From: Methanocalculus chunghsingensis
GTDB taxonomy: Archaea; Halobacteriota; Methanomicrobia; Methanomicrobiales; Methanocorpusculaceae
NCBI RefSeq assembly: GCF_018132105.1
Contig: NZ_JWHL01000003.1
Location: 1 to 64,000, forward strand
Direction of reading: 5' to 3'
DNA length: 64,000 nucleotides
The translations under genes and the position numbers were made by a program. Shown piece after piece: positions 4,423 through 20,868 of this stretch. The notes under the pieces were generated by a model that saw nothing but the letters and a program-made list of their open reading frames with translations, made no database searches and was not told where the DNA came from. Within the stretch, counting starts at the first letter, position 1, and the number at the start of each line of letters is the position of its first letter.

Positions 4423-5343
4423 TTGGCCTTCGATCAGGAAAATTCTCTTCGCTGGGGTAATTCACTAGGCGGCGATCTCTATCTCGCTTTATTATTCCCC
4501 TCAAAATCAAATCTAACCCTTTATAAATGTGGAAGGAACATACTTCCTTTTGTGCCAGGAAAAACGCCTAAGGCAGAGAAGAAATCAGACGATATTGGCC
4601 AAGATAGCACTGCAAGTGCCCATACTGGCCGTACCCTGATGTTCAATGAATTATCACACATTCTTGATATTACACCTATTGATTGCTCAATCAGTGAGAT
4701 CAAGCGGTTGGTTTATGAGGAGAATATTCTACAAAAAAGCAGCTTCTCCAGCAGAAAAATGAGTTTTTATCGTTTAAAGCTCCTGTATACTCTCGATATC
4801 CAAAATACCGCCTTTAAAACCCTTCGTTTCTTCTGGAATAAAGCGCCGGATGAGAGGCCGCTAATTGCTCTGGAAGCTGCTCTTGCACGAGATCACATCC
4901 TGCGCTATTCCGCGCAAAAAATTCTCCCTCTTAAATGTGATACGCTGATAACAAAGGAAGAGATGATCAAAAACATCCAGCAGGAATATGGTAAGCTCTA
5001 TACTCAAAACGTACTAGAATCAACTTCCCGCAATCTCCTCTCATCCTGGGTACAATCCGGCCATCTGAGCGGAAGGGTGAAGAAGAGTCGGAGAAAAGCA
5101 ACAGCAGGTCCTGCATCCCTTACATATGCCCTCCTCCTTGGCCAGCTCTCAGGTGTAGAGGGGTCATCACTCTTTGAAACTGTCTTAGTGCATGCACTGG
5201 ATGCAACCGATACCGAGATCCAAGCATACCTCCATGCTGCGATGAGGAAAGGGTGGCTTATGTACCGGAATGCCGGAGGTATCATTGAACTTACAATAAC
5301 ATTGGATCTGAATGGAGAGGTGAAGAAGAATGGGCATGATTGA
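4423..5343 (+). CDS. brxA: BrxA-like protein (DUF1819), first gene of the BREX operon
   Basis: The frame opens with TTG 4423, but the first 72 residues do not look like BrxA and have no good ribosome site. An in-frame ATG at 4639 (MFNELSHIL) would give 234 residues, closer to the usual DUF1819 length. From there the sequence follows the BrxA pattern: a short helix-rich start, NILQKS then RLKLLYTLD, an ALARD segment, and a C-terminal winged-helix-like part ending in a GW-containing turn and IELTI. BrxA is a small DNA-binding BREX component. Its stop overlaps brxB by 14 bases. Assignment rests on position plus these patterns. A short frame-2 ORF (ATG 4385, 27 codons) overlapping the odd N-terminus could mean a frameshift. 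Confidence 0.6.
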   Translation: MAFDQENSLRWGNSLGGDLYLALLFPSKSNLTLYKCGRNILPFVPGKTPKAEKKSDDIGQDSTASAHTGRTLMFNELSHILDITPIDCSISEIKRLVYEENILQKSSFSSRKMSFYRLKLLYTLDIQNTAFKTLRFFWNKAPDERPLIALEAALARDHILRYSAQKILPLKCDTLITKEEMIKNIQQEYGKLYTQNVLESTSRNLLSSWVQSGHLSGRVKKSRRKATAGPASLTYALLLGQLSGVEGSSLFETVLVHALDATDTEIQAYLHAAMRKGWLMYRNAGGIIELTITLDLNGEVKKNGHD

Positions 5344-5875
5344 GAACCTTATTGATGCATATCAGCGGCAGGTATCGCTCCCCTGGGAAGAGATGCTTTC
5401 GGAACAGGAGAAGATCTGGTTCTGTGTCTATGAGCCCCCCTATGAGCGGCGAATAGAGGCACGCCTCGAAGAGTTCAGGATCAAGACTCTTGAATCAGGC
5501 CATTTATGGAGGCATATCAATATTGCAGGGGCATTTGAATCATGGCTGATCGAAAACGAGTATCATGAAGAGTACTTCAGAGTCCCCTCCGATCTCGAAT
5601 ATGATCTTTTGGATTTCATCAGGCACCTCGTTCTTCTTTTGAGGAAGGAGATAGAAGAGACGGATGCGAATACCATTGTTGCAGTCACCGGGATCGGATC
5701 CCTCTACGGGATCGTCCGTGCCAGTGCAGTCATCGATCAGGCGGTCAAAGAGACCCCGATACCAGGGAGGCTGGTATTCTTCTTCCCAGGAGATCGTGAT
5801 GCGAGAAACTACCGTCTCTTAAAAGCCCGGGATGGGTGGAATTATCTTGCGACGCCCATTGAAGCAGAGGAGTGA
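5330..5875 (+). CDS. brxB: BrxB, DUF1788 BREX protein
   Basis: A 181-residue protein with the DUF1788 hallmarks: an N-terminal helical half with WEEML and the YEPPYE segment, and a C-terminal half where IVAVTGIGSLYGIVRAS is followed by RLVFFFPG and a conserved ARDGWNYLATPI ending. BrxB is an essential core protein of type I BREX with no assigned enzyme activity. The C-terminal part has an alpha/beta look. ATG 5330 or ATG 5336 could be the start; both overlap brxA. The stop overlaps the GTG of brxC in a GTGA junction, so translation of the two is probably coupled. Confidence 0.88.
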   Translation: MGMIENLIDAYQRQVSLPWEEMLSEQEKIWFCVYEPPYERRIEARLEEFRIKTLESGHLWRHINIAGAFESWLIENEYHEEYFRVPSDLEYDLLDFIRHLVLLLRKEIEETDANTIVAVTGIGSLYGIVRASAVIDQAVKETPIPGRLVFFFPGDRDARNYRLLKARDGWNYLATPIEAEE

Positions 5876-8800
5876 TACTAGTGAACGAATATGACACAAT
5901 CCTGAATAAACAGGTTTTTTATAGCGATCCGACGAGCTACACCATACCAAATGACGGTGTAACCAAAGTCGGCCCAATCACCGATGAGAATCAGCTTGCA
6001 GTAGCCCGGTACGAACTTGCCAACTTCGTCTGTGAGGGATCATACCATCAGGGGCTCAAGGCGATCCTTGAGTCGTTCCTTGATAATCTCGACAATCCGG
6101 TTCAGCCTGCGGTATGGGTGAGCGGGTTCTTCGGATCAGGCAAATCGCACCTCGTCCGTGTACTTGAGTTCCTCTGGAGTGATCTTCCCTTTCCTGATGG
6201 AGCAACTGCACGGGATATCGCCTCACTCCCGCAGGATATCAAAGATGCTTTAAAGCAACTCACCACCGAGGGGAGAAGAAATGGCGGCATATGGTCTGCG
6301 GCAGGAACCCTGAGTTCCGGGGTTGGAGACAACCCCCGGAACGCCATCCTCCAGGTGGTCCTCCGTGCAGCAGGTCTCCCTGACAACATCGATCTTGCAC
6401 GGATTCATCTCTGGCTTGCTGAGTACGGAATCCTTGAATCAATGCAACAATGTCTCTCTGAACAGGGGAAGCAAAAGGATATGTCACGGCCTTTCGTCTC
6501 AACTGCCTTTGCAGAAGCCCTCATCGCTCTCCATCCTGATTTTACAACCCGTTCCCCCGAAGAGGCACGTGAAGATCTCCGCCGCCAGTTTAAAACCGAT
6601 TTTCATGTGACGAATGCCGTTATGGCAGAGATGCTCAATGAGATCTTTGCCATGAAGAGCACCCAGAAAGGGAAGATGCCGCTCGTCTTAATTGTCCTTG
6701 ACGAGGTCCAGCAGTACCTGACTATCGGTGAGGGTGCAGACCAGCTCCTGGCATTTCAGGGAGTGATCGAAGATATCAGCAGCAGGTTCAGATCACGGCT
6801 ACTGATCGTCGCAACCGGTCAGGAGGCACTCCTGGCAAATAAACTTCTGCAGCGGTTGCAGGGGCGGTTCTCTCAGCGTGTCACTCTCGATTCTAAAGAT
6901 GTCGATGTGGTCCTCCGGCAGACGGTCCTTCGGAAGAAAGAGTCGATGAAGGCACCGCTTGAAGAGATCCTCGACTCGGTCAACGGCGAGATCTCACGCC
7001 ATCTTGACGGATCAAAACTTGCACACCGGTTTGATGATGAACGGGTACTCCCCCTCGATTATCCCCTCCTGCCAAGCAGGAAACGATTCTGGGAGCGGGT
7101 GCTCCATTCGGTGGATACCGGCGGGATGAGCACACAGCTCCGAAACCAGCTCCGTATCACTTTTGATGGGGCGAAGAGGTATGCAGATAAACCACTGGGA
7201 ACAGTAATTCCGGCAGATTTCATCTATTCCCAGCAGAAGACACACCTGATCAGGAATAATATCCTCTCACAGCAGATCTCAGAGAATATCGCAAAAGAGG
7301 ATGATGGAACGCCTGAAGGGGAGCTGAAGTCGCGGATCTGCGCCCTCCTCTTCCTGATACAGCAGATAGACGAGTCTTTTGGACTCCGTGCAACGCCGGA
7401 TACACTGGCCGATCTCCTGATCACCGATCTCGCCAGCGGATCAGAGAACCTCAGGCGGGAGATCCCCGGGCTCCTTGAGGATCTCCATGAGGGCGGTGTC
7501 ATCGCAAAGGTCGGGGATGAGTATCGTATCCAGACTGAAGAGGGGAGTGTCTGGGAGGGCGAGTACCAGAAGCGGAAGACCGATTACAAAGCAGATGACA
7601 CACAGGTGATCTTTAAAAGAAACGAACTCCTGCAGGCACATCTTCGCGACCATCTGGGCAGGATCACAATCACACAGGGGGAGACCAGGACCCCCCGTGA
7701 TATTGACCTCGCCTATTTCTCGTCTCTCAGACCGGAGATCGGATCAAAGATCCCGATCTGGATCAGGCATGGCTGGGAGGTCTCCGAGTCGGCAGTGAAG
7801 GCAGATGCAGCAGCAGAAGGAAATGACAGCCCGCTTGTGATGGCATTTATCCCAAAGAGAGACCATGACGCCTTCAGAGATGAGATCGCAGGGCTCCTTG
7901 CCGCTGAGAATGTGATAGCGGACCGGCCCGCACCGACGACACCGGAGGGTGATCAGGCACGATCAAATATCCAGGCAAAGAAGACCGGGCATATCCAGCG
8001 GATTGAGCGGATCATCGGTACACTACTCTCCAACGCATCGGTCTATCTTGGAGGGGGGATGAAGATCGAGGGTGACTCGTTAGCCGGTGCCATCCAGACA
8101 GCTGCAGCACGTGCGGTCATCCGGATGTACCCCCGCTTCCCTGAAGCCGATACGAAGGGTTGGGATCAGGTGATCACAAGGGTGAAGAGCAGTGATCAGA
8201 CACCCCTGAAGAAGATCGGATATGAGAGGGGACCCGAGGAGCAGCCGGTCTGTAAAGAGATCCTGAAACGGCTGGCGAACCCAAAGAACGGAAATGAATT
8301 GAGAAAGTCTCTTGACCAGCCGCCGTTTGGCTGGCCGCGTGATGCAGTCGATGGTGCGGTGATGGTGCTTGTTGCATCGAACCATCTGAAGGCGAGCATA
8401 AACGGAAAGCCGTTATCGGCAGTGGATCTAGACCGGCAGCAGATTGGAAAAGCAACCTTTGCTGCTGAAAACATTGTCCTGACACAGACCGAGAGGCTGG
8501 CGGCCCGATCATTGTACCGGGAGTTTGGGCTGAGCACTGAGGCGGGCCGGGAGACTGAGGAGGCGATCCGATTCTTAACCGCTCTTGAAACACTTCTTTA
8601 CAAGACCGGTGGTGAGCCTCCGCTTCCGCAGGTAATAAAGCCGGGGTACCTCCCTGAACTTCATGGGTATTCAGGGAATCAGCTTGTCCGGGAGCTGGTG
8701 ATCAGGCAGGATGAGATCAAGGCCGACATAGGGCGCTGGCAGACAGTTGTAACCAGGATTTCGGTTAAGAGACCGGGCTGGGAGGCACTTTGGCACCTGA

Positions 8801-9348
8801 TCGACCATGCCGGAGGGCTGCCTGAACTTGACGAGATCCGATCCGAAGCAGCGGTGATCACAGAATACCGGAGCCTCCTTGCTGATCCCGATCCGGTAGA
8901 GCCGCTACTTTCCGATCTGCGGAACGGGCTCCGGGAAGCGATCAGGGAGGGGAGAGAGCGGGTTGAAGCCGCACGTTCTGGTGTCATGGCCGCACTTAAA
9001 GACGATCCCCTCTGGCTGAAGCTCTCTGATGGTGATCGTGCCGGGCTGATCCGAACCTATACTCTTGAGGAGCTCCCCCCCTTAAAGACAGGAACCGATG
9101 CTGAGATCATCGAGCAGCTGAAGAAGACGCCGCTTCGATCCTTTGATGGGGCTGTCCGGCTTATTGAGGGGGCACTCACCAGTATTAGGGAGAGGGCGGC
9201 ACAGATTCTTGAGCCGAAGACGGTGATGGTTCCTCTTGGGAGATCTCTGACCGTGAAGACAATTGAGGACCTTGATGAGTATTTTGCAGAGGTACGGGGC
9301 AGGGTTCTTGCAGAACTTGAGAAGGGCAATCCGGTGATGCTGAAATGA
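5872..9348 (+). CDS. brxC: BrxC, large P-loop ATPase of BREX
   Basis: 1158 residues, matching the usual 1100-1200 of BrxC/PglY-like proteins (DUF499-related). Walker A GFFGSGKS lies at residues 85-92 and Walker B LVLIVLDE around residues 271-278. The rest is a long alpha-helical body. It starts at GTG 5872 overlapping the brxB stop; a second GTG at 5881 is possible. The end overlaps pglX as ATGA. BrxC is needed for both methylation and phage exclusion and is thought to act as an AAA-type motor with the other Brx proteins. GC content is well above that of the Gabija genes and of the DUF2254 gene, so the BREX backbone seems long resident or comes from a similar-GC donor. Confidence 0.9.
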   Translation: MILVNEYDTILNKQVFYSDPTSYTIPNDGVTKVGPITDENQLAVARYELANFVCEGSYHQGLKAILESFLDNLDNPVQPAVWVSGFFGSGKSHLVRVLEFLWSDLPFPDGATARDIASLPQDIKDALKQLTTEGRRNGGIWSAAGTLSSGVGDNPRNAILQVVLRAAGLPDNIDLARIHLWLAEYGILESMQQCLSEQGKQKDMSRPFVSTAFAEALIALHPDFTTRSPEEAREDLRRQFKTDFHVTNAVMAEMLNEIFAMKSTQKGKMPLVLIVLDEVQQYLTIGEGADQLLAFQGVIEDISSRFRSRLLIVATGQEALLANKLLQRLQGRFSQRVTLDSKDVDVVLRQTVLRKKESMKAPLEEILDSVNGEISRHLDGSKLAHRFDDERVLPLDYPLLPSRKRFWERVLHSVDTGGMSTQLRNQLRITFDGAKRYADKPLGTVIPADFIYSQQKTHLIRNNILSQQISENIAKEDDGTPEGELKSRICALLFLIQQIDESFGLRATPDTLADLLITDLASGSENLRREIPGLLEDLHEGGVIAKVGDEYRIQTEEGSVWEGEYQKRKTDYKADDTQVIFKRNELLQAHLRDHLGRITITQGETRTPRDIDLAYFSSLRPEIGSKIPIWIRHGWEVSESAVKADAAAEGNDSPLVMAFIPKRDHDAFRDEIAGLLAAENVIADRPAPTTPEGDQARSNIQAKKTGHIQRIERIIGTLLSNASVYLGGGMKIEGDSLAGAIQTAAARAVIRMYPRFPEADTKGWDQVITRVKSSDQTPLKKIGYERGPEEQPVCKEILKRLANPKNGNELRKSLDQPPFGWPRDAVDGAVMVLVASNHLKASINGKPLSAVDLDRQQIGKATFAAENIVLTQTERLAARSLYREFGLSTEAGRETEEAIRFLTALETLLYKTGGEPPLPQVIKPGYLPELHGYSGNQLVRELVIRQDEIKADIGRWQTVVTRISVKRPGWEALWHLIDHAGGLPELDEIRSEAAVITEYRSLLADPDPVEPLLSDLRNGLREAIREGRERVEAARSGVMAALKDDPLWLKLSDGDRAGLIRTYTLEELPPLKTGTDAEIIEQLKKTPLRSFDGAVRLIEGALTSIRERAAQILEPKTVMVPLGRSLTVKTIEDLDEYFAEVRGRVLAELEKGNPVMLK

Positions 9349-12300
9349 CCGTCCTCTCCCGTGAGGACCGGGGCGCCCTCGATACCGCCGTCCAGGCGGC
9401 TCGTCGGGTGGCAGAAGCAGGGGCACGAAATGCACTCTCTGTCCTCGGCATCTGTGACGAGAAGAAGCCGCCTCATCTGACTCTGGAGCAGGCAGAACTC
9501 CGGCGGCTGCTCCGGGTAGAACTGAGGCGGCTTGGGGGGGTTAATGCAGAGGGGTTTGAGGCACTCATCCGGGCGGTCGCCTATGAGCAGTGGCACAGGA
9601 TGCTCTTTGCCCGGTTCCTTGCCGAGAACGATCTCCTCTTCCACCCAACATACAAGGTTGCTGTCACACTCGCCGAGTGCGGGGAGATCGCCCGCGAAGA
9701 GAACCGGGATCTCTTTGAGCTTGCGGCAGAGTATGCCGAATGGATGCTCCCCGGCATCTTCAGGCAGGATGATCCGCTCCTTTCGATCCGGTATGCACCC
9801 GAAGATACCGCAGGGCTTCATTCGATCCTCTCCGGGATCTCTGATCTGACTTTCCTTGCCGAGGATGCACTCGGCTGGACGTACCAGTTCTGGCAGACCG
9901 AGAAGAAGAAAGAGGTGAACGTATCTGAGCGGAAGATAGAAGGGTATGATCTCTGTGCTGTCACGCAGCTCTTCACCGAGCCCTATATGGTGCAGTTCCT
10001 CTTAGAGAATACGCTTGGAGCCTGGTGGCTCTCACTCCATCCGGAGAGCAGGCTCCGATCTGAATGGGTCTATTACAAGGAGCAGGTCCAGCACGACTTC
10101 TCGACCTGGCCAACCGCCATCAACGATCTCAGAATCCTTGATCCCTGCTGTGGATCAGGGCATTTTCTGGTCCGGGCGTTCCATATGCTCCTTGCGATGC
10201 GGCAGGAGCTCGGTGAGGATGACGAGTCTGCCATCGCCGCAATCATCGGAAAGAACCTTCACGGCCTCGAACTCGACCCCCGGTGCATCCAGATCGCCAC
10301 CTTCGCCCTCGCCCTTGAGGCATGGAAGGCGGGATTCTCACCGACGAAGTCATACCTGCCGGTACCAAACCTCGCCTGCACCGGTATCCCGATCAAAGCT
10401 GAGAAAGAGGAGTGGCTCCGGCTCGCGGGCGGGGATGGTTCGCTTGAGATAGAGCTTGAGAAGTACTATGAGCTCTTTAAGAATGCCGACACCCTCGGAA
10501 GCCTGATTCAGGTCGATTCCGGCGAGACACTTGCGAACGCCGAAACCCTGAAGAAGGCATTTGAGCGGGCAATTAAGAAGGAGAAGGATGCCGGTGATCC
10601 GGTTGCCGCGATCTTCGGGGAGACGGCACACGGGGTGATGAAGGCGGTGGATCTTCTGTCGCGGAAGTATGACTGTGTCGTGACGAATGTGCCGTATCTC
10701 TCCGGTGGAAAGCATGGGAGTCTCCTGAAGTCATTCTGCCAAGATAATTATTCTGATGCAAAGAATGATATTGCAACGGTCTTTCTCAAACGATGCCTCT
10801 CGTTATGCCGGAGAGGCGGGAAAGTCAGTGCCGTCATGCCGCAGAACTGGCTCTTTCTGAAATCCTATATGAAGTTCCGGGAGGGGTTGCTGAAGCAGGA
10901 GCGGTGGGATCTGCTGGCGAGGCTTGGAGAAGGAGGTTTTCATAGCTCTGCCGCCGCAGGTGCATTTACCATTCTCCTGAGTATCAGCCATACACAGGCA
11001 CCAGAGGGGCATATGCTCTGCGGGCTCGATGTATCGGAGGAGCGTAGCGCGGCGGCGAAGGCCGGGGCTCTCGTTGATGCAGAGATGAAGTGCGTGGAGC
11101 AGAAGGGGCAGTTGGAGAATCCGGATGGAAGAATTGTTTTTGAAATGAATACTAATGAAACATTACTATCTACAATTTCTTACTGCTATCATGGATTAAC
11201 TTCTGGCGATATGCCAAGAATGAAATTCTGTTACTGGGAGATTACTGAATTAATGGATATTTGGATGCCATATCAAGGAACTATCTCAAATCATATTTTT
11301 TTCGGAGGAAATGAATGTTTATTACGATGGGAACACGGTAACGGAGCTATTCGTATATTGCCTGGAGCTCGAAGGGATGGTTTGGAAGCGTGGGGTAAAC
11401 AGGGGGTCTTAATAAGTCAAATGAGAGTTCTTCCATCAACCATCTTTAAAAAAGAGGCATATGATAACAATACTGCAGTTATAGTCCCCCATAACCCCGC
11501 CCACCTCCCTGCCATCTGGTGCTTCTGCTCCTCCCCCGAATACAACACAGCAGTCCGTAAAATCGATCAAAGCCTCAAAGTCACCAACGCTACCCTCGTC
11601 AAAGTCCCCTTCGACATCGACCACTGGACGAAAGTTGCCGAGGAGCAGTACCCTCATGGCCTTCCAGAACCCTATTCAGACGATCCCACCCAGTGGCTCT
11701 TCCACGGCCACCCCTGCGGCTCGGTCATCTGGGACGAAGAGACAAAAAGGCTCACCCACGGGCCGATCAGGACCGATGCAACCGTCCTCCATGTCGCCAT
11801 TGCCCGCCTCCTCGGGTACCGCTGGCCCGCCGAGACCGATCCCGGGATGGAGCTTGCCGCAGAAGCACGGGAATGGGTGAAAAGATGCGATGCCCTCCTC
11901 CCGTTCGCCGATGATGACGGCATCGCCGGTATCCCCTCGCTCCGGGGAGAAGGGCGGCTTGTGGATCGGCTGCGGTCGCTCCTTGCCGCCGCATACGGGA
12001 CTGCGTGGTCGCCTGAGATGGAGAACAAGCTCCTCCGGGCGGCTGGCTATACAAAGAATGACGGACAGCTGAAAGGGGATCTCGAGAGTCTCCTCAGGGA
12101 CGGCTTCTTCGCCTCACACTCACAGCTCTTCCACCACCGCCCCTTCATCTGGCAAATATGGGACGGGAGGCCGGACGGGTTTTCGGTCCTCCTCAACTAT
12201 CATAAACTGGATCGGCGCAACCTTGAGCGGCTCATCTACACCTACCTCGGCGGCTGGATCACCCAGCAGCGATCCGAAGTCGCCGCCGGAAACCCGGGTT

Positions 12301-12626
12301 CAGAAGAGCGGCTGGTTGCCGCCCTCGACCTGAAAGGACGGCTTGAGAAGATACTTGAGGGTGAGAAGCCCTATGATATTTTTATCAGGTGGAAACCGAT
12401 CCATGAACAACCTATCGGCTGGGATCCCGATCTCAATGATGGTATCCGTCTGAATATCCGGCCATTTGTTGAGGCGGGGGTGCTTCGATCCACCCCGAAG
12501 ATCCACTGGAGGACAGACCGGGGGAAAGATCCGGTGCCAAACGCATCCGGGACGATGGAACGGCATAACGACCGGCACTTCAAAATCGATGAGAAGAAGC
12601 AGGCAAGAGTGGATTGGGATCTATAA
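9345..12626 (+). CDS. pglX: PglX, BREX adenine-specific DNA methyltransferase
   Basis: 1093 residues; methylates the non-palindromic BREX site and gives sequence specificity. The SAM-binding motif I DPCCGSG is at residues 266-272. The catalytic motif IV is TNVPYLSGGK, with N448-V-P-Y451 where NPPY is usual; the asparagine and the P-Y are kept. Residues about 596-714 (bases 11131-11486) are encoded by strikingly AT-rich sequence with different codon use, while both flanks are GC-rich: this sits where a target recognition domain would be. The last about 100 codons (12297-12605) are repeated at 14422-14730, and the C-terminus (QARVDWDL) differs from that in the repeat. The start overlaps brxC as ATGA. 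Confidence 0.9.
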   Translation: MTVLSREDRGALDTAVQAARRVAEAGARNALSVLGICDEKKPPHLTLEQAELRRLLRVELRRLGGVNAEGFEALIRAVAYEQWHRMLFARFLAENDLLFHPTYKVAVTLAECGEIAREENRDLFELAAEYAEWMLPGIFRQDDPLLSIRYAPEDTAGLHSILSGISDLTFLAEDALGWTYQFWQTEKKKEVNVSERKIEGYDLCAVTQLFTEPYMVQFLLENTLGAWWLSLHPESRLRSEWVYYKEQVQHDFSTWPTAINDLRILDPCCGSGHFLVRAFHMLLAMRQELGEDDESAIAAIIGKNLHGLELDPRCIQIATFALALEAWKAGFSPTKSYLPVPNLACTGIPIKAEKEEWLRLAGGDGSLEIELEKYYELFKNADTLGSLIQVDSGETLANAETLKKAFERAIKKEKDAGDPVAAIFGETAHGVMKAVDLLSRKYDCVVTNVPYLSGGKHGSLLKSFCQDNYSDAKNDIATVFLKRCLSLCRRGGKVSAVMPQNWLFLKSYMKFREGLLKQERWDLLARLGEGGFHSSAAAGAFTILLSISHTQAPEGHMLCGLDVSEERSAAAKAGALVDAEMKCVEQKGQLENPDGRIVFEMNTNETLLSTISYCYHGLTSGDMPRMKFCYWEITELMDIWMPYQGTISNHIFFGGNECLLRWEHGNGAIRILPGARRDGLEAWGKQGVLISQMRVLPSTIFKKEAYDNNTAVIVPHNPAHLPAIWCFCSSPEYNTAVRKIDQSLKVTNATLVKVPFDIDHWTKVAEEQYPHGLPEPYSDDPTQWLFHGHPCGSVIWDEETKRLTHGPIRTDATVLHVAIARLLGYRWPAETDPGMELAAEAREWVKRCDALLPFADDDGIAGIPSLRGEGRLVDRLRSLLAAAYGTAWSPEMENKLLRAAGYTKNDGQLKGDLESLLRDGFFASHSQLFHHRPFIWQIWDGRPDGFSVLLNYHKLDRRNLERLIYTYLGGWITQQRSEVAAGNPGSEERLVAALDLKGRLEKILEGEKPYDIFIRWKPIHEQPIGWDPDLNDGIRLNIRPFVEAGVLRSTPKIHWRTDRGKDPVPNASGTMERHNDRHFKIDEKKQARVDWDL
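12297..12605 (+). repeat. Direct repeat copy 1: 3' end of pglX
   Basis: 309 bp in the intact pglX that match 14422-14730 without gaps. I count about 27 differences by eye, so about 91 percent identity, with one long identical stretch in the middle. Most differences are at third codon positions, so both copies evolved as coding sequence before they came to lie side by side. Confidence 0.9.
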
Positions 12627-12639
12627 CTATATCACCGTG

Positions 12640-14289
12640 ATGACAATGAGCGATAACCAGTACACAGATCCGCAAGGAAAACCTGGAACGTTTACCAATA
12701 GGGTAAGGCGTACATTTCTCGAGCTTGATGAAAAACATCCAAAGCAGTTCTGGTTTCTATTCTACGCTCTTATATTCTTCATTGCCGCTATTCTAGGAGC
12801 AGGCTTTGGACTCCTATTTCCGTACAAAGCAATCGATGTCAATAGTGCCAGATACATTCTGAGCGCACTTATTCAAAGCCAGGCTGCTGTGATCTCAATT
12901 GTAATATCATTGACATTGATTGCAGTACAATTGACAGCACAAATATATTCACCCCGTATCACTGAATTTTTCAAGAGTCATATCAATATGTGGTGCTTCT
13001 TGGCTAGTTATATTATATCGATAGCATTTAGCTCGTTTTTACTGATACTTCTTGTAGGGACCGATCTCACTAATAGTGCAACTGTAAGGATACTCCTCTA
13101 CTTTTCCCTATTTCTCGCAATTTTTTTGTTTTTTGCTCTAATACCATATATTTACATCACCATGAACCTACTAAATGCCGACACTGTTATTAAACGGCTT
13201 ACAGCTGCTATCCAAATACCTGATAGTCTTGATCCTGAACATGATCCGTTTCAGCCAGTATTTGATGTTATTTATGGTGCAATTAAGCGTTTTGACTTTA
13301 TTGCTATGAGTAATGGATTCACACAAATAGTAAATAACTATGAAAAAATTGTAATGGATAATCGAAAACACGCCCAACTAGAATATATTAATTCTAGATT
13401 TTTTGATGATTTTAAGCGATGTGGTGTTTTACTCATTGAAATACGAGAAGAGAAATTTGTATTTGAGGTTGTCCATAAGCTCTCTCTCATCATCAATTGG
13501 AGTGTTAAAAATGAATTAAAATCATCATTTCATTGGTGTATCATAACTTTATGCGAAATTGGTGTTAAATCCGCAGAAAATGGAATGCGTTCCCCTTTAA
13601 ATGAGACTATAACCTCAATAGATGAAATTATTCAAGACATAGAGCTTGAAGTCGGTCCAAACGATCTGAATATCAACTCTAAGATCTACCAATTGATAAA
13701 GTGTCAGGAGAAGCTAGGAATCACCGCAGTATCGAACAATATTGAGGATTCTGCAAAAAAAGCGGTTGATTCGATTCAAAGCAATATTGAAAGAATTATA
13801 GAATTTAATACAAACAATAATTATGACATCTTTTTGGATTTTTATTTAACCATAGGGAAGGACGCACTAGAGAAGCACTCCGCTCTTGTTATGATTGAAG
13901 TATTGGATTCAATTGAAAAAACTTATAACATAGCCATTACGCATAAAAATATAAAGCTAGCGGATGATTGTCTCCGAACACTCAAATCTCTCGGGCTCAT
14001 CGCTGGAAAACTTGGATTGAAAAAACAAATTAGCAATATTTTAAACAGTATTTTTCATATTACTGTTAAAGCTCGCGATAAGAAACTGGACCAACTTTAT
14101 CGGACAGGTCTTGAACAATTAGCAGAAATACGACTAACGTATCCAGATATCTTTGATAAACACCAATGGCCAGACTATAGGTTTGATGGTATTTCAGATT
14201 TTTATGTAGAAAGGAATTTTGACATAGAAGAAGAAGTCATAATTTTGGATCATCAAATAATTGATGATTGGATAAAAAAAAAGAGATGA
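12640..14289 (+). CDS. DUF2254-type membrane protein inserted in the BREX operon
   Basis: Start chosen at ATG 12640 (or 12646), 13 bases after the pglX stop; the open frame extends further back but only as an overlap of pglX. The product is about 549 residues. Four membrane helices lie in the first 190 residues, and the second is followed by a VISLTLIAVQLTAQIYSPRIT segment (given in parts: SLTLIAVQL, then SPRI) that matches the DUF2254 pattern of an SLTLVALQL helix plus an SPR turn. The remainder is a long soluble helical domain facing the cytoplasm by the positive-inside rule. The gene is very AT-rich, unlike the flanking BREX genes, and lies exactly between two copies of the pglX 3' end, so it arrived by recombination. 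DUF2254 has no settled function; a membrane effector role is a guess. Confidence 0.65.
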   Translation: MTMSDNQYTDPQGKPGTFTNRVRRTFLELDEKHPKQFWFLFYALIFFIAAILGAGFGLLFPYKAIDVNSARYILSALIQSQAAVISIVISLTLIAVQLTAQIYSPRITEFFKSHINMWCFLASYIISIAFSSFLLILLVGTDLTNSATVRILLYFSLFLAIFLFFALIPYIYITMNLLNADTVIKRLTAAIQIPDSLDPEHDPFQPVFDVIYGAIKRFDFIAMSNGFTQIVNNYEKIVMDNRKHAQLEYINSRFFDDFKRCGVLLIEIREEKFVFEVVHKLSLIINWSVKNELKSSFHWCIITLCEIGVKSAENGMRSPLNETITSIDEIIQDIELEVGPNDLNINSKIYQLIKCQEKLGITAVSNNIEDSAKKAVDSIQSNIERIIEFNTNNNYDIFLDFYLTIGKDALEKHSALVMIEVLDSIEKTYNIAITHKNIKLADDCLRTLKSLGLIAGKLGLKKQISNILNSIFHITVKARDKKLDQLYRTGLEQLAEIRLTYPDIFDKHQWPDYRFDGISDFYVERNFDIEEEVIILDHQIIDDWIKKKR

Positions 14290-14322
14290 TTATATCAATC
14301 ACTTAAGGAAAATGGAGATTAT

Positions 14323-14760
14323 ATGATCCAAAAAGTCTTAGAATCTGTCGCATTGGTTAGACAGAAAACAATTAGATGCCATAAATTTGAAGATATCAAC
14401 CCCTTCGTTGCTGCCACCCCCGGTTCAGAAGAGCGGCTTGTTGCCGCCCTTGACCTGAAAACACGGCTTAAGAAGATACTTGAGGGTGAAGACCCCTATG
14501 ATATTTTTATCAGGTGGAAACCCCTGCATGAGCAACCGATCGGATGGGACCCGGATCTTAATGATGGCATCCGGTTGAATATCCGGCCATTTGTTGAGGC
14601 GGGGGTGCTTCGATCCACCCCGAAGATCCACTGGAGGACAGACCGTGGCAAAGATCCGGTGCCGAATGCATCCGGGACGGTGGAGCGGCATAACGACCGG
14701 CACTTCAAAATCGATGAAAAGAAGCAGGCACGGGAAAGAGCGAAAGGAGAAGAGAAATGA
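14323..14760 (+). pseudogene. pglX: Displaced 3' fragment of pglX
   Basis: From about 14422 the frame encodes the last about 110 residues of a PglX, near-identical in protein to the C-terminus of the upstream pglX but ending in KKQARERAKGEEK. The first about 33 codons of the open frame (from ATG 14323) have no PglX similarity and are AT-rich. No methyltransferase domain is present. The stop overlaps the ATG of the following ATPase gene as ATGA, which is how the other BREX genes are joined, so this is probably the original operon's pglX end, cut off when the DUF2254 gene and a second pglX end came in. It may still be translated and couple ribosomes to the downstream genes. Confidence 0.8.
14422..14730 (+). 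repeat. Direct repeat copy 2: 3' end of pglX
   Basis: Gap-free partner of 12297-12605. The left edge near 14415-14422 is sharp: upstream AT-rich sequence switches to GC-rich PglX coding sequence. Together with copy 1 it brackets the DUF2254 gene. Confidence 0.9.
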
Positions 14761-15854
14761 GGAAACTGGATACGATCCATATTTCGGGTTTTAAATCGAT
14801 AAAGAACCTGGATGTCACCTTACACGATCTCAATGTCATGATCGGTGCAAATGGTGCCGGAAAGACCAATTTTATCTCCATCTTCCGGCTCCTGAACGAG
14901 ATGGTTGAGGGGAGGCTCCAGTTCGCAGTGGCAAAAGCAGGAGGGGTCCGCTCACTCCTGCATTATGGTCCAAAGACCACAAAGAAGATCGAGGTCAATC
15001 TCCGTTTCGGAAAGAATGGATACTCCTGCATCTGGGATAGTGCAGGGGATGAAGGTCTTATCTTCCAACGAGAAGAAACAGAGTTCTATGGTCATGGACC
15101 GGATGCAACCCCGTACTATGATCTGGTTGAAACAGGTCATCGGGAGACAAAGCTGAATAATTATGCAAAATTACCTGGTCACCAGGTATCGCGTTTTGTT
15201 CTTGAGAGCCTGAAGAGTTGGCGGGTCTATCATTTTCATGATACCAGCAATGAATCCCCGATAAAAGCGATAGAACAGATCAATGACAATATGTACTTCA
15301 GGTACAATGCATCGAATCTTGCTCCATTTCTCTACTACCTACAAAAAATCCATGAAAAAAACTATAATGATATAAGAGATATGGTTCGGCTTGCCGCACC
15401 GTTCTTCGATGATTTTATCCTCAGACCACTCCCAGAGAACAATGACCTGATAAAGCTTGAATGGAAGGAGAAAAACTCAGACTACCCATTCCTTGCCCAC
15501 CACCTTTCAGACGGGACACTCCGGTTCATCTGCCTTGCAACACTCCTCCTCCAGCCGGATCTCCCGGAGTTAATCCTCATTGACGAGCCGGAACTTGGCC
15601 TGCATCCGTATGCCCTGAATATCGTTGCAGACCTGATCATGAGTGCATCAAAACGCTCACAGATCATCCTCTCAACACAGTCTGTCAGTCTGATCAACCA
15701 GTTTGAACCTGAAGATATCCTTGTCGTTGACCGCCATGATGGAGAGACGACGATCAAACGGCTTGTTCCAGAAGATCTCGAAGACTGGCTCTCTGACTAC
15801 TCTCTTGGCGAGCTCTGGGAGATGAACATCCTCGGCGGAAAACCCCAGCGGTGA
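14757..15854 (+). CDS. ABC-class ATPase (AAA_21 type) paired with DUF4276, copy 1
   Basis: 365 residues. Begins with the SMC/RecF-like signature GFKSIKNLDV followed by Walker A GANGAGKT at residues 30-37. The ABC signature region is LSDGTLRFI near residue 246. Walker B is LILIDEPELGLHP, with D276-E277. A switch-histidine-like region reads STQSVSLINQF, and the C-terminus ends WLSDYSLGELWEMN. This is the COG4637-like single-gene ATPase typically followed by DUF4276. It overlaps the pglX fragment by ATGA and precedes the DUF4276 gene by 4 bases. Together the two genes split the ATPase and TOPRIM parts that OLD proteins hold in one chain, as in the PARIS system. Its place between pglX and pglZ suggests co-expression with BREX. 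A close paralogue lies at 24943. Confidence 0.8.
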   Translation: MRKLDTIHISGFKSIKNLDVTLHDLNVMIGANGAGKTNFISIFRLLNEMVEGRLQFAVAKAGGVRSLLHYGPKTTKKIEVNLRFGKNGYSCIWDSAGDEGLIFQREETEFYGHGPDATPYYDLVETGHRETKLNNYAKLPGHQVSRFVLESLKSWRVYHFHDTSNESPIKAIEQINDNMYFRYNASNLAPFLYYLQKIHEKNYNDIRDMVRLAAPFFDDFILRPLPENNDLIKLEWKEKNSDYPFLAHHLSDGTLRFICLATLLLQPDLPELILIDEPELGLHPYALNIVADLIMSASKRSQIILSTQSVSLINQFEPEDILVVDRHDGETTIKRLVPEDLEDWLSDYSLGELWEMNILGGKPQR

Positions 15855-15858
15855 TTGC

Positions 15859-16533
15859 ATGATCAGGTTAAAGATCATCTGTGAAGGTCAGACCGAAGAA
15901 AGTTTTATCAAAGAAGTAGTAACGCTCTATCTCAAAAAGTTCCAGATTGAGGTCATAGCGATCATCCTCCCCACATCGATCAGAGAGAGGACATATCGCG
16001 GAGGAATTGGACCCTATTCTCGTGTAAGAAAAGATATTCTCCGATCTTTTGAGAGGGATGGGGCCTATGTCACAACCATGTTTGACCTCTATAAATTGCA
16101 TCATTCATTTCCCGGGAAGGGTGAGTCAGAAAAAATTTCGGATATCTATGAACGTGTCAGGGTGATTGAAGAGGCACTTATGGCGGATATTAACAACCGC
16201 TTCTTCATCCCCTATATCCAGCTCCATGAGTTTGAAGCTCTCCTATTCTCAGACATCTCTACCATTGATGAACTATTGATACCCAGCTCTCAATCCAAGA
16301 TCCCAGAGTTAGAAACCATTATCCGAAACCATCCAAATGGTCCGGAATCGATTAATGATGGTGAAGAGACAGCCCCATCAAAAAGGCTTCTGAAATTGTA
16401 CCCCTCATACAAGAAGAGAACACGAGGCATTCAGATTGCAATGAGAATACCTCTTGAAATTATGCGGGAACAGTGCCCGCACTTTGATGCCTGGCTCATG
16501 AAAATTGAGCAGCTCTCCGGAGACAGAGCATGA
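15859..16533 (+). CDS. DUF4276 protein (TOPRIM-like), copy 1
   Basis: 224 residues. The N-terminal strand and turn LKIICEGQTEE (EGQTE at residues 9-13) is a TOPRIM-type acidic motif. A second acidic site follows in TTMFDLYKL, then the family signature FIPYIQLHEFEALLFSD, an INDGEETAPSKR segment and a CPHFDAWL ending. This is the complete DUF4276 pattern. TOPRIM nucleases use such acidic residues to bind Mg2+, so a nuclease or RNase effector released by the ATPase is a reasonable inference but is unproven. The stop overlaps the pglZ ATG, which puts the gene inside the BREX transcription unit. The paralogue at 26093 keeps all these motifs. Confidence 0.8.
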   Translation: MIRLKIICEGQTEESFIKEVVTLYLKKFQIEVIAIILPTSIRERTYRGGIGPYSRVRKDILRSFERDGAYVTTMFDLYKLHHSFPGKGESEKISDIYERVRVIEEALMADINNRFFIPYIQLHEFEALLFSDISTIDELLIPSSQSKIPELETIIRNHPNGPESINDGEETAPSKRLLKLYPSYKKRTRGIQIAMRIPLEIMREQCPHFDAWLMKIEQLSGDRA

Positions 16534-18827
16534 AAACCACATTCCTTGAAACAGTTCACAACGCCCTGAAGAACGCGACAACTGAGTATAATCGCAACGA
16601 TGCCGCACCCCCCGTTGCCCTGCTCTGGACAGATCCCACAGAGGAGTGGCGACCAGTCGTTTCGCTCTTAAAGAAGACATTTCAGATGCCGATCATGACG
16701 CTTGGCTCTTATGATCCGGACTCATGGCAGGGTCCCGCCATCTATCTCAGGTGTCTCCTTGAAGAAACAATCCCAGACACTACATTCCCAAAAGGTGACT
16801 GTCCTATCATCTACCTTCCGGGGTATTCGCGAGATGCATTTAGGAATAGCCGGGACTGTCCGGATATGATCAAGCCACTCATTGAGCTCCAGTACCGTGG
16901 CTTGCTCTGGTCGCACAAGAACGGGAGGGACTGGACGATTGCAGGCTTTCTTCAGGCAAACTATAGTATCGAAACACAGCCGGATCAGGCGACAAAAGAT
17001 GCACTCAGAAGCTCGATAGAGAAACTCTGCCAGGAGACGATACAGACACTCAGATCAAACCAGCCACTCAAAGCCGGTTTCTTCACCAGCCTCACTCATC
17101 CTGATGAAAAGAAACAGATACTTCTCTGGATGAATGCTCCTGAAGAGGAGCGGGGAAAGATGTCGCAAGGTGATTGGACATCCTTCCGTTTTATCTGTAA
17201 AAGTGATTATAAATTTGATCCCCAGATCGATGGCGTGGCAACCGCAGCTGAGAAACTCGCATCCCAGGAGGAGAGGAGATGGCAACAAATATGGGAGCGT
17301 TTTATCGAGACGCCTGAGAGGTTTCCTGATATACCTAATCTTCTTAGAAACCTTGTCCGACCTTCATTTATCGTCTTTAAGGATTCGTGGCCCCAGATCA
17401 ATGATGAAGAGGAAAAGAAACTTCATACTGACCTCCTCGCACTTGAGCAGGTATCTGCAAGGGAAGCTGCTGAAACAATTCAAAGGCTTGAAAAAGCCCA
17501 TGCCGAACGGCGGAGCTGGGTCTGGGCAGCAGTAGGGGAGAGTCCCCTTGCGATGGCATTACAACCATTGAACGAACTTGCAGAGCTTTCTGCACATTAT
17601 ACCTTTGGCGGAACGTTGGATGAGCAGGCGAGACGCTATACCGAGACGCTCTATATGGCAGACAATGCCATCCTGCGTAGTCTTGAGTATGCAACCGATG
17701 CCGATACAACGAAAGCAGTAACCACTGCTATCAGAGCAGTTGCTCTCAACTGGCTCTCTGCACGTGCAGAGGAGTTCCAGAAAGCATGGTGCTCATCTCC
17801 GCCCGAGCAGATGAAACAAACAAGTCCTCCCGTTGTGGGAGAGGTGCTCCTCTTTGTTGATGGCCTTCGTATGGACTGCGGTCACCGGCTCAAAAAAATC
17901 CTCGGGGATGCAGGGGAGGAATGCAGCCTTTCATACAGGTATTCGGTGCTCCCGACCCTGACCGAGACGGCAAAGCCCGCTGTGATGCCCATAGCCGGAG
18001 AGCTTGCATCAGGAGAAGGGCTTACCCCATGCACGCAGAGCGGTGCTGCAGCAGAGATCCAGGCACTCAGACGGCTCCTTGAGGCACATTCGTATCAGGT
18101 CCTGAAAGAAGGAGAGTATGGTGATCCTGCAGGTTCGGCATGGACCGAGATCGGCAACATCGATCATAGCGGCCATGACAGAGGGATCGCCCTTGCCTCA
18201 ACCCTTGATCACGAACTCTCGCTCATCGGGAATCGGGTACACTCTCTCCTTCAGTCAGGATGGTCACAGGTTCGGATCGTCACCGATCACGGCTGGGTCC
18301 TTATCCCTGGAGGCCTGCAGAAGACTGATCTCCCCCCGGCTTATACAGTTGTCAAAAAGGGGAGATGTGCCCGACTCCATCCGGATGTTCAGGTCTCCTA
18401 TCCTGTGCTTCCGTGGTTCTGGGATCGGAACGTTCGGATCGCCCTTGCTCCTGGTATCACCTGTTTTGAAGCTGGAAAGGAATTTGATCATGGGGGATTG
18501 AGCCCTGAAGAGGCCGTTGTTCCCGAGATCATTGTCAGGAGGGGTGGGGGTGTTCAGTCTGTGATAGAGGTCGAACCTCCGGTTTGGAGAGGTTTGCGCC
18601 TCTCGGTAGATACGAGTGGTGCAGAAGGATCTCGAATTGATATCCGTGAGAAACCCGGAGATCCGGCAACCAGTCTCTTAGAGGCGAGCAAGACGATCCC
18701 CGCAGATGGAAAGGTATCGCTGGTCATACCGGATGATCGTTTCGAAGGAACAGAAGCGTTCATCGTAATTCTGGATGATAATGGCAATCCATCTGCCCAG
18801 AGAAAGGTGATTATTGGAGGAGAATGA
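16530..18827 (+). CDS. pglZ: PglZ, BREX alkaline-phosphatase-superfamily protein
   Basis: 765 residues, slightly shorter than the usual about 850. The C-terminal half carries the phosphatase-fold metal motifs: VDGLRMD with D444, TDHGW at 585-589, and FDHGGLSPEE with D653-H654. The N-terminal half is a helical BREX-specific region. PglZ is a core BREX protein; metal-dependent nuclease or phosphodiesterase activity has been reported for family members. It overlaps DUF4276 upstream by ATGA, and its own stop lies 4 bases before the chosen brxL start, with the brxL ribosome site inside pglZ. Confidence 0.9.
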   Translation: MKTTFLETVHNALKNATTEYNRNDAAPPVALLWTDPTEEWRPVVSLLKKTFQMPIMTLGSYDPDSWQGPAIYLRCLLEETIPDTTFPKGDCPIIYLPGYSRDAFRNSRDCPDMIKPLIELQYRGLLWSHKNGRDWTIAGFLQANYSIETQPDQATKDALRSSIEKLCQETIQTLRSNQPLKAGFFTSLTHPDEKKQILLWMNAPEEERGKMSQGDWTSFRFICKSDYKFDPQIDGVATAAEKLASQEERRWQQIWERFIETPERFPDIPNLLRNLVRPSFIVFKDSWPQINDEEEKKLHTDLLALEQVSAREAAETIQRLEKAHAERRSWVWAAVGESPLAMALQPLNELAELSAHYTFGGTLDEQARRYTETLYMADNAILRSLEYATDADTTKAVTTAIRAVALNWLSARAEEFQKAWCSSPPEQMKQTSPPVVGEVLLFVDGLRMDCGHRLKKILGDAGEECSLSYRYSVLPTLTETAKPAVMPIAGELASGEGLTPCTQSGAAAEIQALRRLLEAHSYQVLKEGEYGDPAGSAWTEIGNIDHSGHDRGIALASTLDHELSLIGNRVHSLLQSGWSQVRIVTDHGWVLIPGGLQKTDLPPAYTVVKKGRCARLHPDVQVSYPVLPWFWDRNVRIALAPGITCFEAGKEFDHGGLSPEEAVVPEIIVRRGGGVQSVIEVEPPVWRGLRLSVDTSGAEGSRIDIREKPGDPATSLLEASKTIPADGKVSLVIPDDRFEGTEAFIVILDDNGNPSAQRKVIIGGE

Positions 18828-18831
18828 GAAT

Positions 18832-20868
18832 ATGCCAGCATTGGATCAACTCGATCAGCTCGTCACAAAAGCTTTTGACGGCTATGTCGTCCGGAAGGAT
18901 CTCGCACAGAAGTTCAAAGGTAACTATGCGGTTCCAACCTATGTAGCCGAGTTTCTCATCGGCAAATACTGTGCCACCACCGATGAAGAGGAGATTAAGG
19001 AAGGGCTTGAGATCGTACAGCGCCAGTTAAGCGAGCGGATTGTCAGGGCAGGGGAGCAGGAACTCTATAAGGCTAATGCGAAGGTGCACGGAACCGTCAA
19101 GGTGATCGATCTTATCACGGCACGTCTGGATGTAAAGAGCGATACTTTTCTGGCGACTATCCCCTCTCTTCTCTTAAATGATGTCCATATCTCTTCTGAT
19201 CTTGTCTATGAACATGAGCGAATGCTGACGGGTGGGTTCTATGCAGAGGTAGAAATTGCGTATGGCGACCCGGAGAGCAACCGTCCGTTCTCCCTCGAAC
19301 GCCTCCGTCCAATCCAGCTCTCAAAACGCGGTGTTCTTCAGGATGTTGCACGTGGCCGTGAAGAGATGACGACACAGGAGTGGAAGGACTTTCTTATCCG
19401 GAGTGTTGGCATTGAGCCATCCTCACTCTCAGCTCGTGCACAGGATGTCCTCTTCCTCCGAATGGTTCCCTTCGTCGAGAAAGGGTACAATATGATAGAG
19501 CTTGGCCCGAGGGGTACCGGGAAAAGTTACCTCTATCAGCAGATCAGTCCTTACTCACACCTGGTATCCGGAGGGAAAGCAACGGTTGCCAAGATGTTTG
19601 TGAATAACGCAAACGGGCAGAGAGGCCTTGTCTGCCAGTATGATGTCGTCTGTTTTGATGAAGTATCCGGGATCAGCTTCGACCAGAAAGACGGCGTCAA
19701 TATTATGAAGGGATACATGGAGAGCGGCGAGTTCTCACGAGGCAGAGAGAGTATCCGGGCTGAAGGCGGCATCGTCATGCTCGGCAACTTCGATGTCGAT
19801 GTTGAGCATCAGCAGAGGATCGGCCATCTCTTTGGTCCCATGCCAAAGGAGATCCGTGACGATACGGCATTTATGGATAGAATCCATTCCTATGTTCCGG
19901 GATGGGACTATCCGAAGATCCACCCTGACATGATGACAGAGCATTACGGATTGGTCAGTGACTTTCTGAGTGAAGCCTGGCGACAGCTCAGGGGTGAAAG
20001 CCGCCTCCATCTCATCAATGATCGGATCTTCTTCGGGGATGCACTCAGTGGTCGTGATCGGCGTGCGGTGAATAAGACGGTGAATGGTCTTCTCAAGATT
20101 CTTTACCCCTCTTCAGAGATGGAGATTGAAGATGATCAACTTGAATGGGTTGTCAGGATTGCACTTGAATGCCGCCGGAGAGTAAAGGAACAGCAGAAAC
20201 GGATCGGATCAGCAGAGTTTCGGAATACGATGTTCAGTTACCGGCTCGGAATTGATGGAATCGAGCAGTATGTCTCGACCCCCGAGCTCCATAGTGACAG
20301 CGAGATATCGCCGGATCCCCTCCCTCCGGGACAGGTCTGGGCTATTGGACCGGGTGAAGCAAATGAAGGGAGTGGCCTTTATAAGATTGAAGTGACTGTC
20401 ACACCAGGTTCCTCCATCCGGCTTGTGAATGTCCGTGCACCATATGGTCTGAAAGAGAGTCTCCGTGCAGCAGAGCAGGTGCTCTACACGCAGAACAAAC
20501 TGCTGATAGGGGATCGTGATCCCCATGGAAATGAATATTCCGTACAGGTCAGAGCGCTGAGTGCTGCAAAGGGAGCATCCTCAATAGGAATACCAATTCT
20601 CCTTGCCCTTTCATCAGCAGCACTGGGACGTAGTCTCAAAGGAGGAGTGGTGATAGCCGGGACGATGAGTGTTGGTGGAACCATTGAACCCGTCTATAAT
20701 GGACTTGATATGGCAGAGATGGCAGCAGATAATGGTGCATCAGCCATATTACTACCGGTATCAAGCAGGAAACAACTGAATGATATGTCCGATGATCTCG
20801 CTTCAAGACTGATGGTGATCTATTACAAAGATGCCCGGGATGCTCTCTACAAAGTGCTTGGAGATTGA
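18832..20868 (+). CDS. brxL: BrxL, AAA+ protein with Lon-like C-terminal domain
   Basis: ATG 18832 is chosen because a GGAGG lies at 18816-18820; an in-frame TTG at 18814 is less likely. 678 residues. Walker A GPRGTGKS is at 225-232 and Walker B CFDEVSG at about 274-280. A Lon-protease-like C-terminal domain contains KGASSIG (580-586), then a VGGTIEPVYNG segment where Lon proteases have their catalytic lysine; I see asparagine there, so proteolysis is doubtful. BrxL forms ring complexes on DNA and is required for exclusion but not methylation. It is the last gene of the BREX operon, and its presence with PglX, PglZ and BrxA-C makes this a type I system. Confidence 0.9.
   Translation: MPALDQLDQLVTKAFDGYVVRKDLAQKFKGNYAVPTYVAEFLIGKYCATTDEEEIKEGLEIVQRQLSERIVRAGEQELYKANAKVHGTVKVIDLITARLDVKSDTFLATIPSLLLNDVHISSDLVYEHERMLTGGFYAEVEIAYGDPESNRPFSLERLRPIQLSKRGVLQDVARGREEMTTQEWKDFLIRSVGIEPSSLSARAQDVLFLRMVPFVEKGYNMIELGPRGTGKSYLYQQISPYSHLVSGGKATVAKMFVNNANGQRGLVCQYDVVCFDEVSGISFDQKDGVNIMKGYMESGEFSRGRESIRAEGGIVMLGNFDVDVEHQQRIGHLFGPMPKEIRDDTAFMDRIHSYVPGWDYPKIHPDMMTEHYGLVSDFLSEAWRQLRGESRLHLINDRIFFGDALSGRDRRAVNKTVNGLLKILYPSSEMEIEDDQLEWVVRIALECRRRVKEQQKRIGSAEFRNTMFSYRLGIDGIEQYVSTPELHSDSEISPDPLPPGQVWAIGPGEANEGSGLYKIEVTVTPGSSIRLVNVRAPYGLKESLRAAEQVLYTQNKLLIGDRDPHGNEYSVQVRALSAAKGASSIGIPILLALSSAALGRSLKGGVVIAGTMSVGGTIEPVYNGLDMAEMAADNGASAILLPVSSRKQLNDMSDDLASRLMVIYYKDARDALYKVLGD

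What the first reader, a model, noticed from the sequence alone, without database searches (positions are those of the whole stretch)
11131..11486. AT-rich segment inside pglX suggests a swapped target recognition domain
About 355 bp in the middle of GC-rich pglX are abruptly AT-rich with different codon choice, and the reading frame is preserved across both edges. The position (residues 596-714, well after the NVPY motif) is where a specificity domain should lie. This looks like in-frame replacement of the recognition domain, giving a new methylation site while keeping the BREX backbone.
Basis: partly seen in the sequence, partly recalled or inferred. Interest (0 to 1): 0.72.

Follow-up and report, generated by a model that had tools for sequence, protein, structure and literature searches.

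The report
Swapped DNA-recognition domain in archaeal BREX PglX
In this methane-making archaeon's BREX antiviral system, the part of the methyltransferase that chooses which DNA word to mark has been exchanged in frame for an unrelated AT-rich version, and comparison with archaea and bacteria (including E. coli) shows that this is how the whole family routinely changes its target.

Summary
The block lies in the target recognition domain (TRD) of a type I BREX PglX. Congeneric PglX proteins are about 90% identical outside it and about 30% inside. The TRD tree rejects the congeners as a clade (AU p=5e-5), while the backbone supports them (99). The closest TRD found is bacterial (Desulfotignum, 56-60%). 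(1) AT-richness does not mark this strain: 64 of 66 relatives across phyla have an AT-shifted TRD, and 10 E. coli pglX alleles show the same (flanks 90-100% identical, middle about 30%). TRD divergence is uncoupled from backbone divergence (r=0.05 over 2145 pairs). (2) The composition edge understates the exchangeable unit: a second, GC-normal patch (aa about 527-545) aligns with the E. coli BrxX loop that reads the sixth base and differs in kind among the three congeners; the base-4 residue (about 745) lies outside the block. No second TRD copy was found, which argues against phase-variable shuffling. Known kind of event, new archaeal example, quantified generality. The changed methylation site is inferred; no methylome was available.

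The parts
9345..12626 (+). pglX (brxX), type I BREX adenine methyltransferase and specificity factor, 1093 aa
   Evidence: PADLOC PglX model PDLC02528, 1396 bits over aa 1-1088; Eco57I/MmeI methylase domains; AlphaFold model pLDDT 88.6, best PDB matches all PglX/BrxX
11129..11485 (+). AT-rich exchanged TRD block (aa 596-714), containing the positions aligned with the base-reading residues for sites 1-3 (and G785) of E. coli BrxX
   Evidence: GC change-point; about 30% identity to congeners against about 90% in flanks, dN 0.8-0.9 and saturated dS; profile mapping to E. coli HS BrxX
11115..11621 (+). whole TRD as mapped from E. coli BrxX 651-837 (aa 591-759); the part after aa 714 is GC-normal here
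   Evidence: hhalign profile-profile mapping; domain limits from PMC11842806
10923..10979 (+). second divergent patch, MTase specificity loop (aa about 527-545, SSAAA class), aligned with E. coli BrxX loop 587-601 that reads the last base
   Evidence: nt identity to L002/L003 falls to 45-53% next to stretches of 89-96% upstream; three loop classes in the family, one per congener
10686..10697 (+). catalytic motif IV NVPY (aa 448-451)
   Evidence: aligned with NPPY 508-511 of E. coli HS BrxX
4423..9348 (+). brxA, brxB, brxC of the same BREX operon
   Evidence: PADLOC BrxA/BrxB/BrxC models
16530..20868 (+). pglZ and brxL of the same operon
   Evidence: PADLOC PglZ 845 bits, BrxL 936 bits

Best explanation
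PglX here is a conserved BREX methyltransferase backbone whose target recognition domain has been exchanged in frame for a distantly related, AT-rich TRD taken from an outside pool. The most likely route is homologous recombination: conserved coding stretches on either side (NPPY and the following MTase core or QLENPD upstream; about aa 715-757, ending in KVPFD, downstream) provide homology, and a donor TRD between them replaces the resident one without breaking the frame. Because PglX sets both host methylation and phage targeting, the exchange would change the BREX site of the cell in one step while BrxA/B/C/PglZ/BrxL stay the same. Shown: location, sharp homology edges, frame preservation, conflict of TRD and backbone history, generality. 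Inferred: the recombination route, the donor lineage, and that the methylated motif changed.
For: Congeners L002/L003: backbone 88-91% aa, block 30-31%; dN 0.06-0.07 in the N-terminal part against 0.82-0.92 in the block, dS 0.5-0.65 against saturated. Homology returns at aa about 712-715 for L003/L004/L005, the same place as the composition edge. Backbone tree: Methanomicrobiales one clade (99); TRD tree: the same label needs 8 changes, as in shuffles, and the congener clade is rejected (AU p=5e-5). Across 66 PglX, TRD and backbone identity are uncorrelated (r 0.05; windows well outside the TRD region 0.5-0.78), and a similarly variable control (aa 385-420) keeps r 0.54. Nearest TRD is bacterial: Desulfotignum 56-60% against 30-48% for any other of 232 genomes of the order. 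E. coli: 353 of 5426 genomes carry a match to one pglX allele, but only 1 covers at least 80% of it; nearly all listed others match in two pieces (mostly 94-97% nt) with the middle missing; 10 alleles differ (about 30% aa) between flanks 90-100% identical. The model superposes on DNA-bound E. coli BrxX, TM 0.74. PglX/BrxX TRD mutations change methylated motif and phage range (PMC11341690, PMC11842806).
Against: No close donor was found: the best TRD is only about 58% identical, so the event itself or its source is old or unsampled. The window comes from a 51-contig assembly. Low GC is family-wide and cannot by itself date or prove a swap. TRD alignment with E. coli BrxX is at about 23% overall identity, and near aa 615-619 it may be one residue out of register. 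The TRD tree rests on 120 columns.
Confidence: 0.92

Rival explanations
1. The domain was never replaced; it evolves very fast in place under diversifying selection from phages, which produces low identity among relatives.
For: TRDs contact DNA and are expected to be under diversifying selection; the block is hypervariable in all relatives.
Against: Synonymous sites are saturated only in the block and fourfold sites change from 0.72 to 0.14 GC, which selection on amino acids does not explain; pairs with 98% identical backbones have 30% identical TRDs; TRDs can match between distant hosts better than between neighbours (Escherichia/Desulfobulbaceae TRD 72%, backbone 56%).
Confidence: 0.04
2. 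Phase-variable shuffling: silent TRD cassettes and an invertase or recombinase swap the domain within one genome, as for HsdS in Streptococcus.
For: Phase variation is reported for pglX genes (statement in PMC11341690).
Against: Only one TRD copy in the own genome; no long inverted repeats flank the block (best 31 nt at 71%); the only long repeat is the pglX 3' end, outside the TRD. The genome is in 51 contigs, so a missing copy is not fully excluded.
Confidence: 0.03
3. AT-richness is an intrinsic, selected feature of PglX TRD codons (for example slow translation at a domain border) and says nothing about origin. This is a rival for the composition only, and is compatible with replacement.
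For: GC3 is lower in the TRD than in the own backbone in 65 of 66 genes, in AT-rich hosts only slightly; inside aa 596-714 the size of the dip is unrelated to the measured decoupling of the TRD (rho 0.01).
Against: In aa 460-591 the dip is larger where that stretch is decoupled from the backbone (rho -0.42, p 0.0015) and small in the window, L004 and L005, where it is not. It does not explain the tree conflict.
Confidence: 0.2
4. Assembly chimera: the AT-rich piece belongs to another organism of the sample.
For: The genome is in 51 contigs.
Against: Frame and family-invariant TRD residues (G617, D622, G655, G687) are kept; the same pattern is in single-contig genomes (G036, G066, G033, G058) and complete E. 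coli genomes.
Confidence: 0.02

Closest known systems
E. coli HS BrxX and Salmonella PglX (type I BREX; PDB 9ewz, 8c45, 8q56)
   Same: Same fold over the full length (TM 0.74/0.69), same order NTD-MTase-TRD-CTD, loop plus TRD read the site
   Different: About 23% sequence identity; different family of PglX, archaeal host; motif unknown. TRD divergence between E. coli HS and Salmonella pglX was noted before (PMC9009780)
TRD exchange in Type I HsdS and other methyltransferases (Helicobacter pylori: PMC3983042, PMC3077401)
   Same: Same kind of event: movement of recognition domains on a conserved methyltransferase backbone changes specificity
   Different: There shown within one species with methylomes, partly by movement between positions of one gene; here in BREX PglX, between archaea and bacteria, one TRD position, no methylome
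Type IIL enzymes MmeI and DrdV
   Same: MTase and TRD are homologous to those of BrxX (PMC11842806); weaker structural match here (TM 0.34-0.38)
   Different: MmeI-type enzymes carry a nuclease domain (own knowledge); PglX works with the BREX complex and no nuclease domain was found in it here

Membership tests
Type I BREX PglX/BrxX | m6A methyltransferase motifs with NPPY-type motif IV | tested here: met
   NVPY aa 448-451 aligned with NPPY 508-511; Eco57I and MmeI_Mtase Pfam hits above cut-off
Type I BREX PglX/BrxX | Four-domain BrxX fold including CTD beyond the TRD | tested here: met
   Full-length match to 9ewz_C, TM 0.74, pLDDT 88.6
Type I BREX PglX/BrxX | Operon brxA-brxB-brxC-pglX-pglZ-brxL | tested here: met
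   PADLOC hits in that order 4423-20868, with extra genes between pglX and pglZ
Type I BREX PglX/BrxX | Methylates a 6-base non-palindromic site and excludes phage | not testable with these tools
   No methylome or phage assay available
Horizontally exchanged TRD | Hypervariable block confined to the specificity parts between conserved flanks in close relatives | tested here: met
Horizontally exchanged TRD | TRD history in conflict with backbone history | tested here: met
   AU p=5e-5 for congeners; r 0.05 over 2145 pairs
Horizontally exchanged TRD | Near-identical donor TRD on another backbone (strongest form of proof, not strictly defining) | tested here: inconclusive
   Best 58-60% aa in Desulfotignum; nothing closer in 232 genomes of the order, 292 of the Desulfotignum order, plasmids, or IMG/VR; sampling is incomplete
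Horizontally exchanged TRD | Changed methylation motif | not testable with these tools
   Needs nanopore or PacBio data
Phase-variable TRD cassette system | Silent TRD copies or inverted repeats and a recombinase at the locus | tested here: not met
   Single TRD copy in G000; no long flanking inverted repeats

The most novel reading that the evidence does not exclude
PglX specificity is carried by a cross-domain (archaea and bacteria) mobile pool of AT-biased TRD cassettes, together with a second, separately exchanged MTase-loop cassette for the last base, so that TRD and backbone evolve as independent entities; the archaeon of this window received both parts separately.
Probability: 0.5. Interest if true: 0.6.

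Novelty: new member of a known kind. Interest (0 to 1): 0.46.

Why it matters
It shows that BREX, like restriction-modification systems, renews its target by swapping one domain, and that this happens in archaea and across the archaea-bacteria border. The near-zero correlation between TRD and backbone means that PglX family or backbone similarity should not be used to predict BREX motifs; the TRD and the MTase loop should be. The natural set of compatible TRDs on near-identical backbones (10 E. coli alleles here) is ready material for domain-swap tests of BREX specificity in laboratory strains.

Tried and rejected
Donor search with the TRD alone in plasmids (7 hits, at most 34%), phages (full PglX, no TRD donor), IMG/VR (none), the whole order (232 genomes, at most 48%) and the order of Desulfotignum (292 genomes, none above 45% but the known one): no close donor. 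The first relative alignment had three loci on the wrong strand, redone. Test of recent versus old exchange from the size of the GC dip inside the TRD: no relation. The N-terminal probe was typed partly from the alignment and partly from recall; it was used only to reach an annotated record, and all conclusions use fetched sequence. GC dip as proof of recent transfer was considered and dropped, because nearly all relatives show it.

Full report
Observation. The pglX gene (9345-12626) has one strongly AT-rich segment. A change-point scan places it at 11129-11485, 35.6% GC against 58.1% in the rest of the gene; the likelihood ratio (32.7) is far above codon shuffles of the same gene (at most 9.0) and above any other gene tested in the window (at most 6.7). 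The shift is in codon choice: GC at fourfold-degenerate third positions is 0.14 in the block and 0.72 in the backbone. The frame is open throughout.

Setting. The window belongs to a 2.13-Mb genome in 51 contigs; the nearest named relative met is Methanocorpusculaceae archaeon UBA456. pglX lies in a type I BREX operon: brxA, brxB, brxC, pglX, (DUF2254 gene, HEC-01A-like ATPase, a 224-aa ORF), pglZ, brxL, with Gabija genes gajA/gajB upstream.

What the block is. An AlphaFold model from 53 aligned sequences (pLDDT 88.6) matches solved PglX/BrxX structures first, TM 0.74 to DNA-bound E. coli BrxX 9ewz. In that structure the TRD is 651-837, bases are read by K681, D684, R751, Q784 and N823, and a loop of the MTase domain, 587-601, reads the last base (PMC11842806). 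Fetching E. coli HS pglX and aligning profiles maps the TRD to aa 591-759 here, K681/D684 to about 615-619, R751 to 677, Q784/G785 to 708/709, N823 to 745 and the loop to 527-541. So the AT-rich block carries the positions for bases 1-3 and part of 4; N823's equivalent and the loop lie outside it. Near 615-619 the register may be off by one.

Was it replaced? Two congeneric species (L002, L003) are 88-91% identical to the window in the backbone and 30-31% in the block; dN is 0.06-0.07 in the N-terminal part and 0.82-0.92 in the block, with dS saturated there. Species of another family (L004, L005; 74-75% backbone) drop at the same places, and homology returns at aa 712-715, where the composition edge lies. 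The backbone tree holds all nine Methanomicrobiales together (99); on the TRD tree the same label needs eight changes, as many as in shuffles, and the congener clade is rejected (AU p=5e-5). The closest TRD found is from a bacterium, Desulfotignum (56-60%), where archaeal TRDs are at 30-48%. The own genome has a single TRD copy and no long flanking inverted repeats.

How general is it? In 66 full-length PglX from many phyla, TRD and backbone identity are uncorrelated (r 0.05; Mantel p 0.13), whereas windows well outside the TRD region reach 0.5-0.78 and a similarly variable control stretch (aa 385-420) 0.54. Pairs with 92-98% identical backbones have 25-35% identical TRDs; an Escherichia and a Desulfobulbaceae PglX share 72% of the TRD and 56% of the backbone. 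GC3 of the TRD is below that of the own backbone in 65 of 66 genes, mean 0.43 against 0.66, and fourfold-site GC in 64 of 66. The E. coli collection is an independent test: one allele matches 353 genomes, but only one over at least 80% of its length; nearly all the listed others match in two flanking pieces (mostly 94-97% nt) with the middle missing. Ten alleles are 90-100% identical in mean up to aa 520 and from 961, mostly about 30% between, with GC 0.28-0.38 there and 0.42-0.61 in the flanks. The AT-rich hypervariable TRD is thus a family rule, and the low GC here does not by itself show that the swap was recent.

A second exchanged part. Between the MTase core and the TRD, aa 526-540 is an island of divergence: nt identity to L002 is 89% before, 53% in, 71% after; to L003 96%, 45%, 51%. 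It aligns with the E. coli loop that reads base six. The family has three main loop types, AFETISGE-like, FQTPMWD-like and FxSSAAA/FxSxQAA-like; the window has the third, L002 the first, L003 the second. Three congeners therefore carry three loops and three TRDs on about 90% identical backbones. Variable extent of exchange is also seen upstream: in L006-L009 and L032 the divergent AT-rich stretch begins at about aa 450, right after NPPY, and in that stretch the GC dip is larger where divergence is decoupled from the backbone (rho -0.42, p 0.0015).

Mechanism. Best-supported: homologous recombination in conserved coding stretches on either side brings in a TRD from another PglX; BREX keeps its other subunits and acquires a new site. 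Replacement and its generality are shown; route, donor and new motif are inferred. That TRD residues set motif and phage range is established for Salmonella PglX and E. coli BrxX (PMC11341690, PMC11842806). Divergence between E. coli HS and Salmonella pglX, read as variable TRDs, was remarked on before (PMC9009780), and TRD movement is well known in H. pylori methyltransferases (PMC3983042, PMC3077401; abstracts). In the library searched I found no account of family-wide uncoupling or AT bias of PglX TRDs, but subscription papers are missing there and I read only parts of the papers.

Verdict. The finding is real and correctly read in its main point. It is an instance of a known kind of event; the added value is the archaeal example with a TRD whose nearest relative is bacterial, the second exchanged loop, and the measured generality.

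Noticed in passing
window 12627-14404 and 14405-14733: An AT-rich DUF2254 membrane-protein gene sits between pglX and a 330-bp second copy of the pglX 3' end (89% nt identical). In congener G007 (L122) the BREX operon is colinear without this insert, and the downstream copy keeps the tail that joins the native downstream sequence: it looks like insertion by recombination at the pglX 3' end.
   Followed up: partly
window 10923-10979: The MTase loop aligned with the base-six reader of E. coli BrxX is exchanged separately from the TRD and falls into three classes across the family.
   Followed up: yes
L071 2438-5971 and 5992-9459: Two full-length pglX genes appear close together in Botrimarina hoheduenensis, a possible tandem pglX pair; the ORF limits overlap or abut and were not examined.
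   Followed up: no
window 548-4352 and 14757-15854: Gabija gajA/gajB directly upstream of BREX and a HEC-01A-like ATPase between pglX and pglZ: a defence island.
   Followed up: no
window 11425-11800: GC skew flips sharply from +0.39 to -0.42 at the 3' edge of the block and stays negative for about 300 bases in a stretch shared with congeners.
   Followed up: no
E. coli collection, pglX loci (L128-L136, L138): Among 353 E. coli genomes matching one pglX allele, only one matches over at least 80% of the gene; the AT-rich middle (aa about 521-955) is allele-specific.
   Followed up: partly
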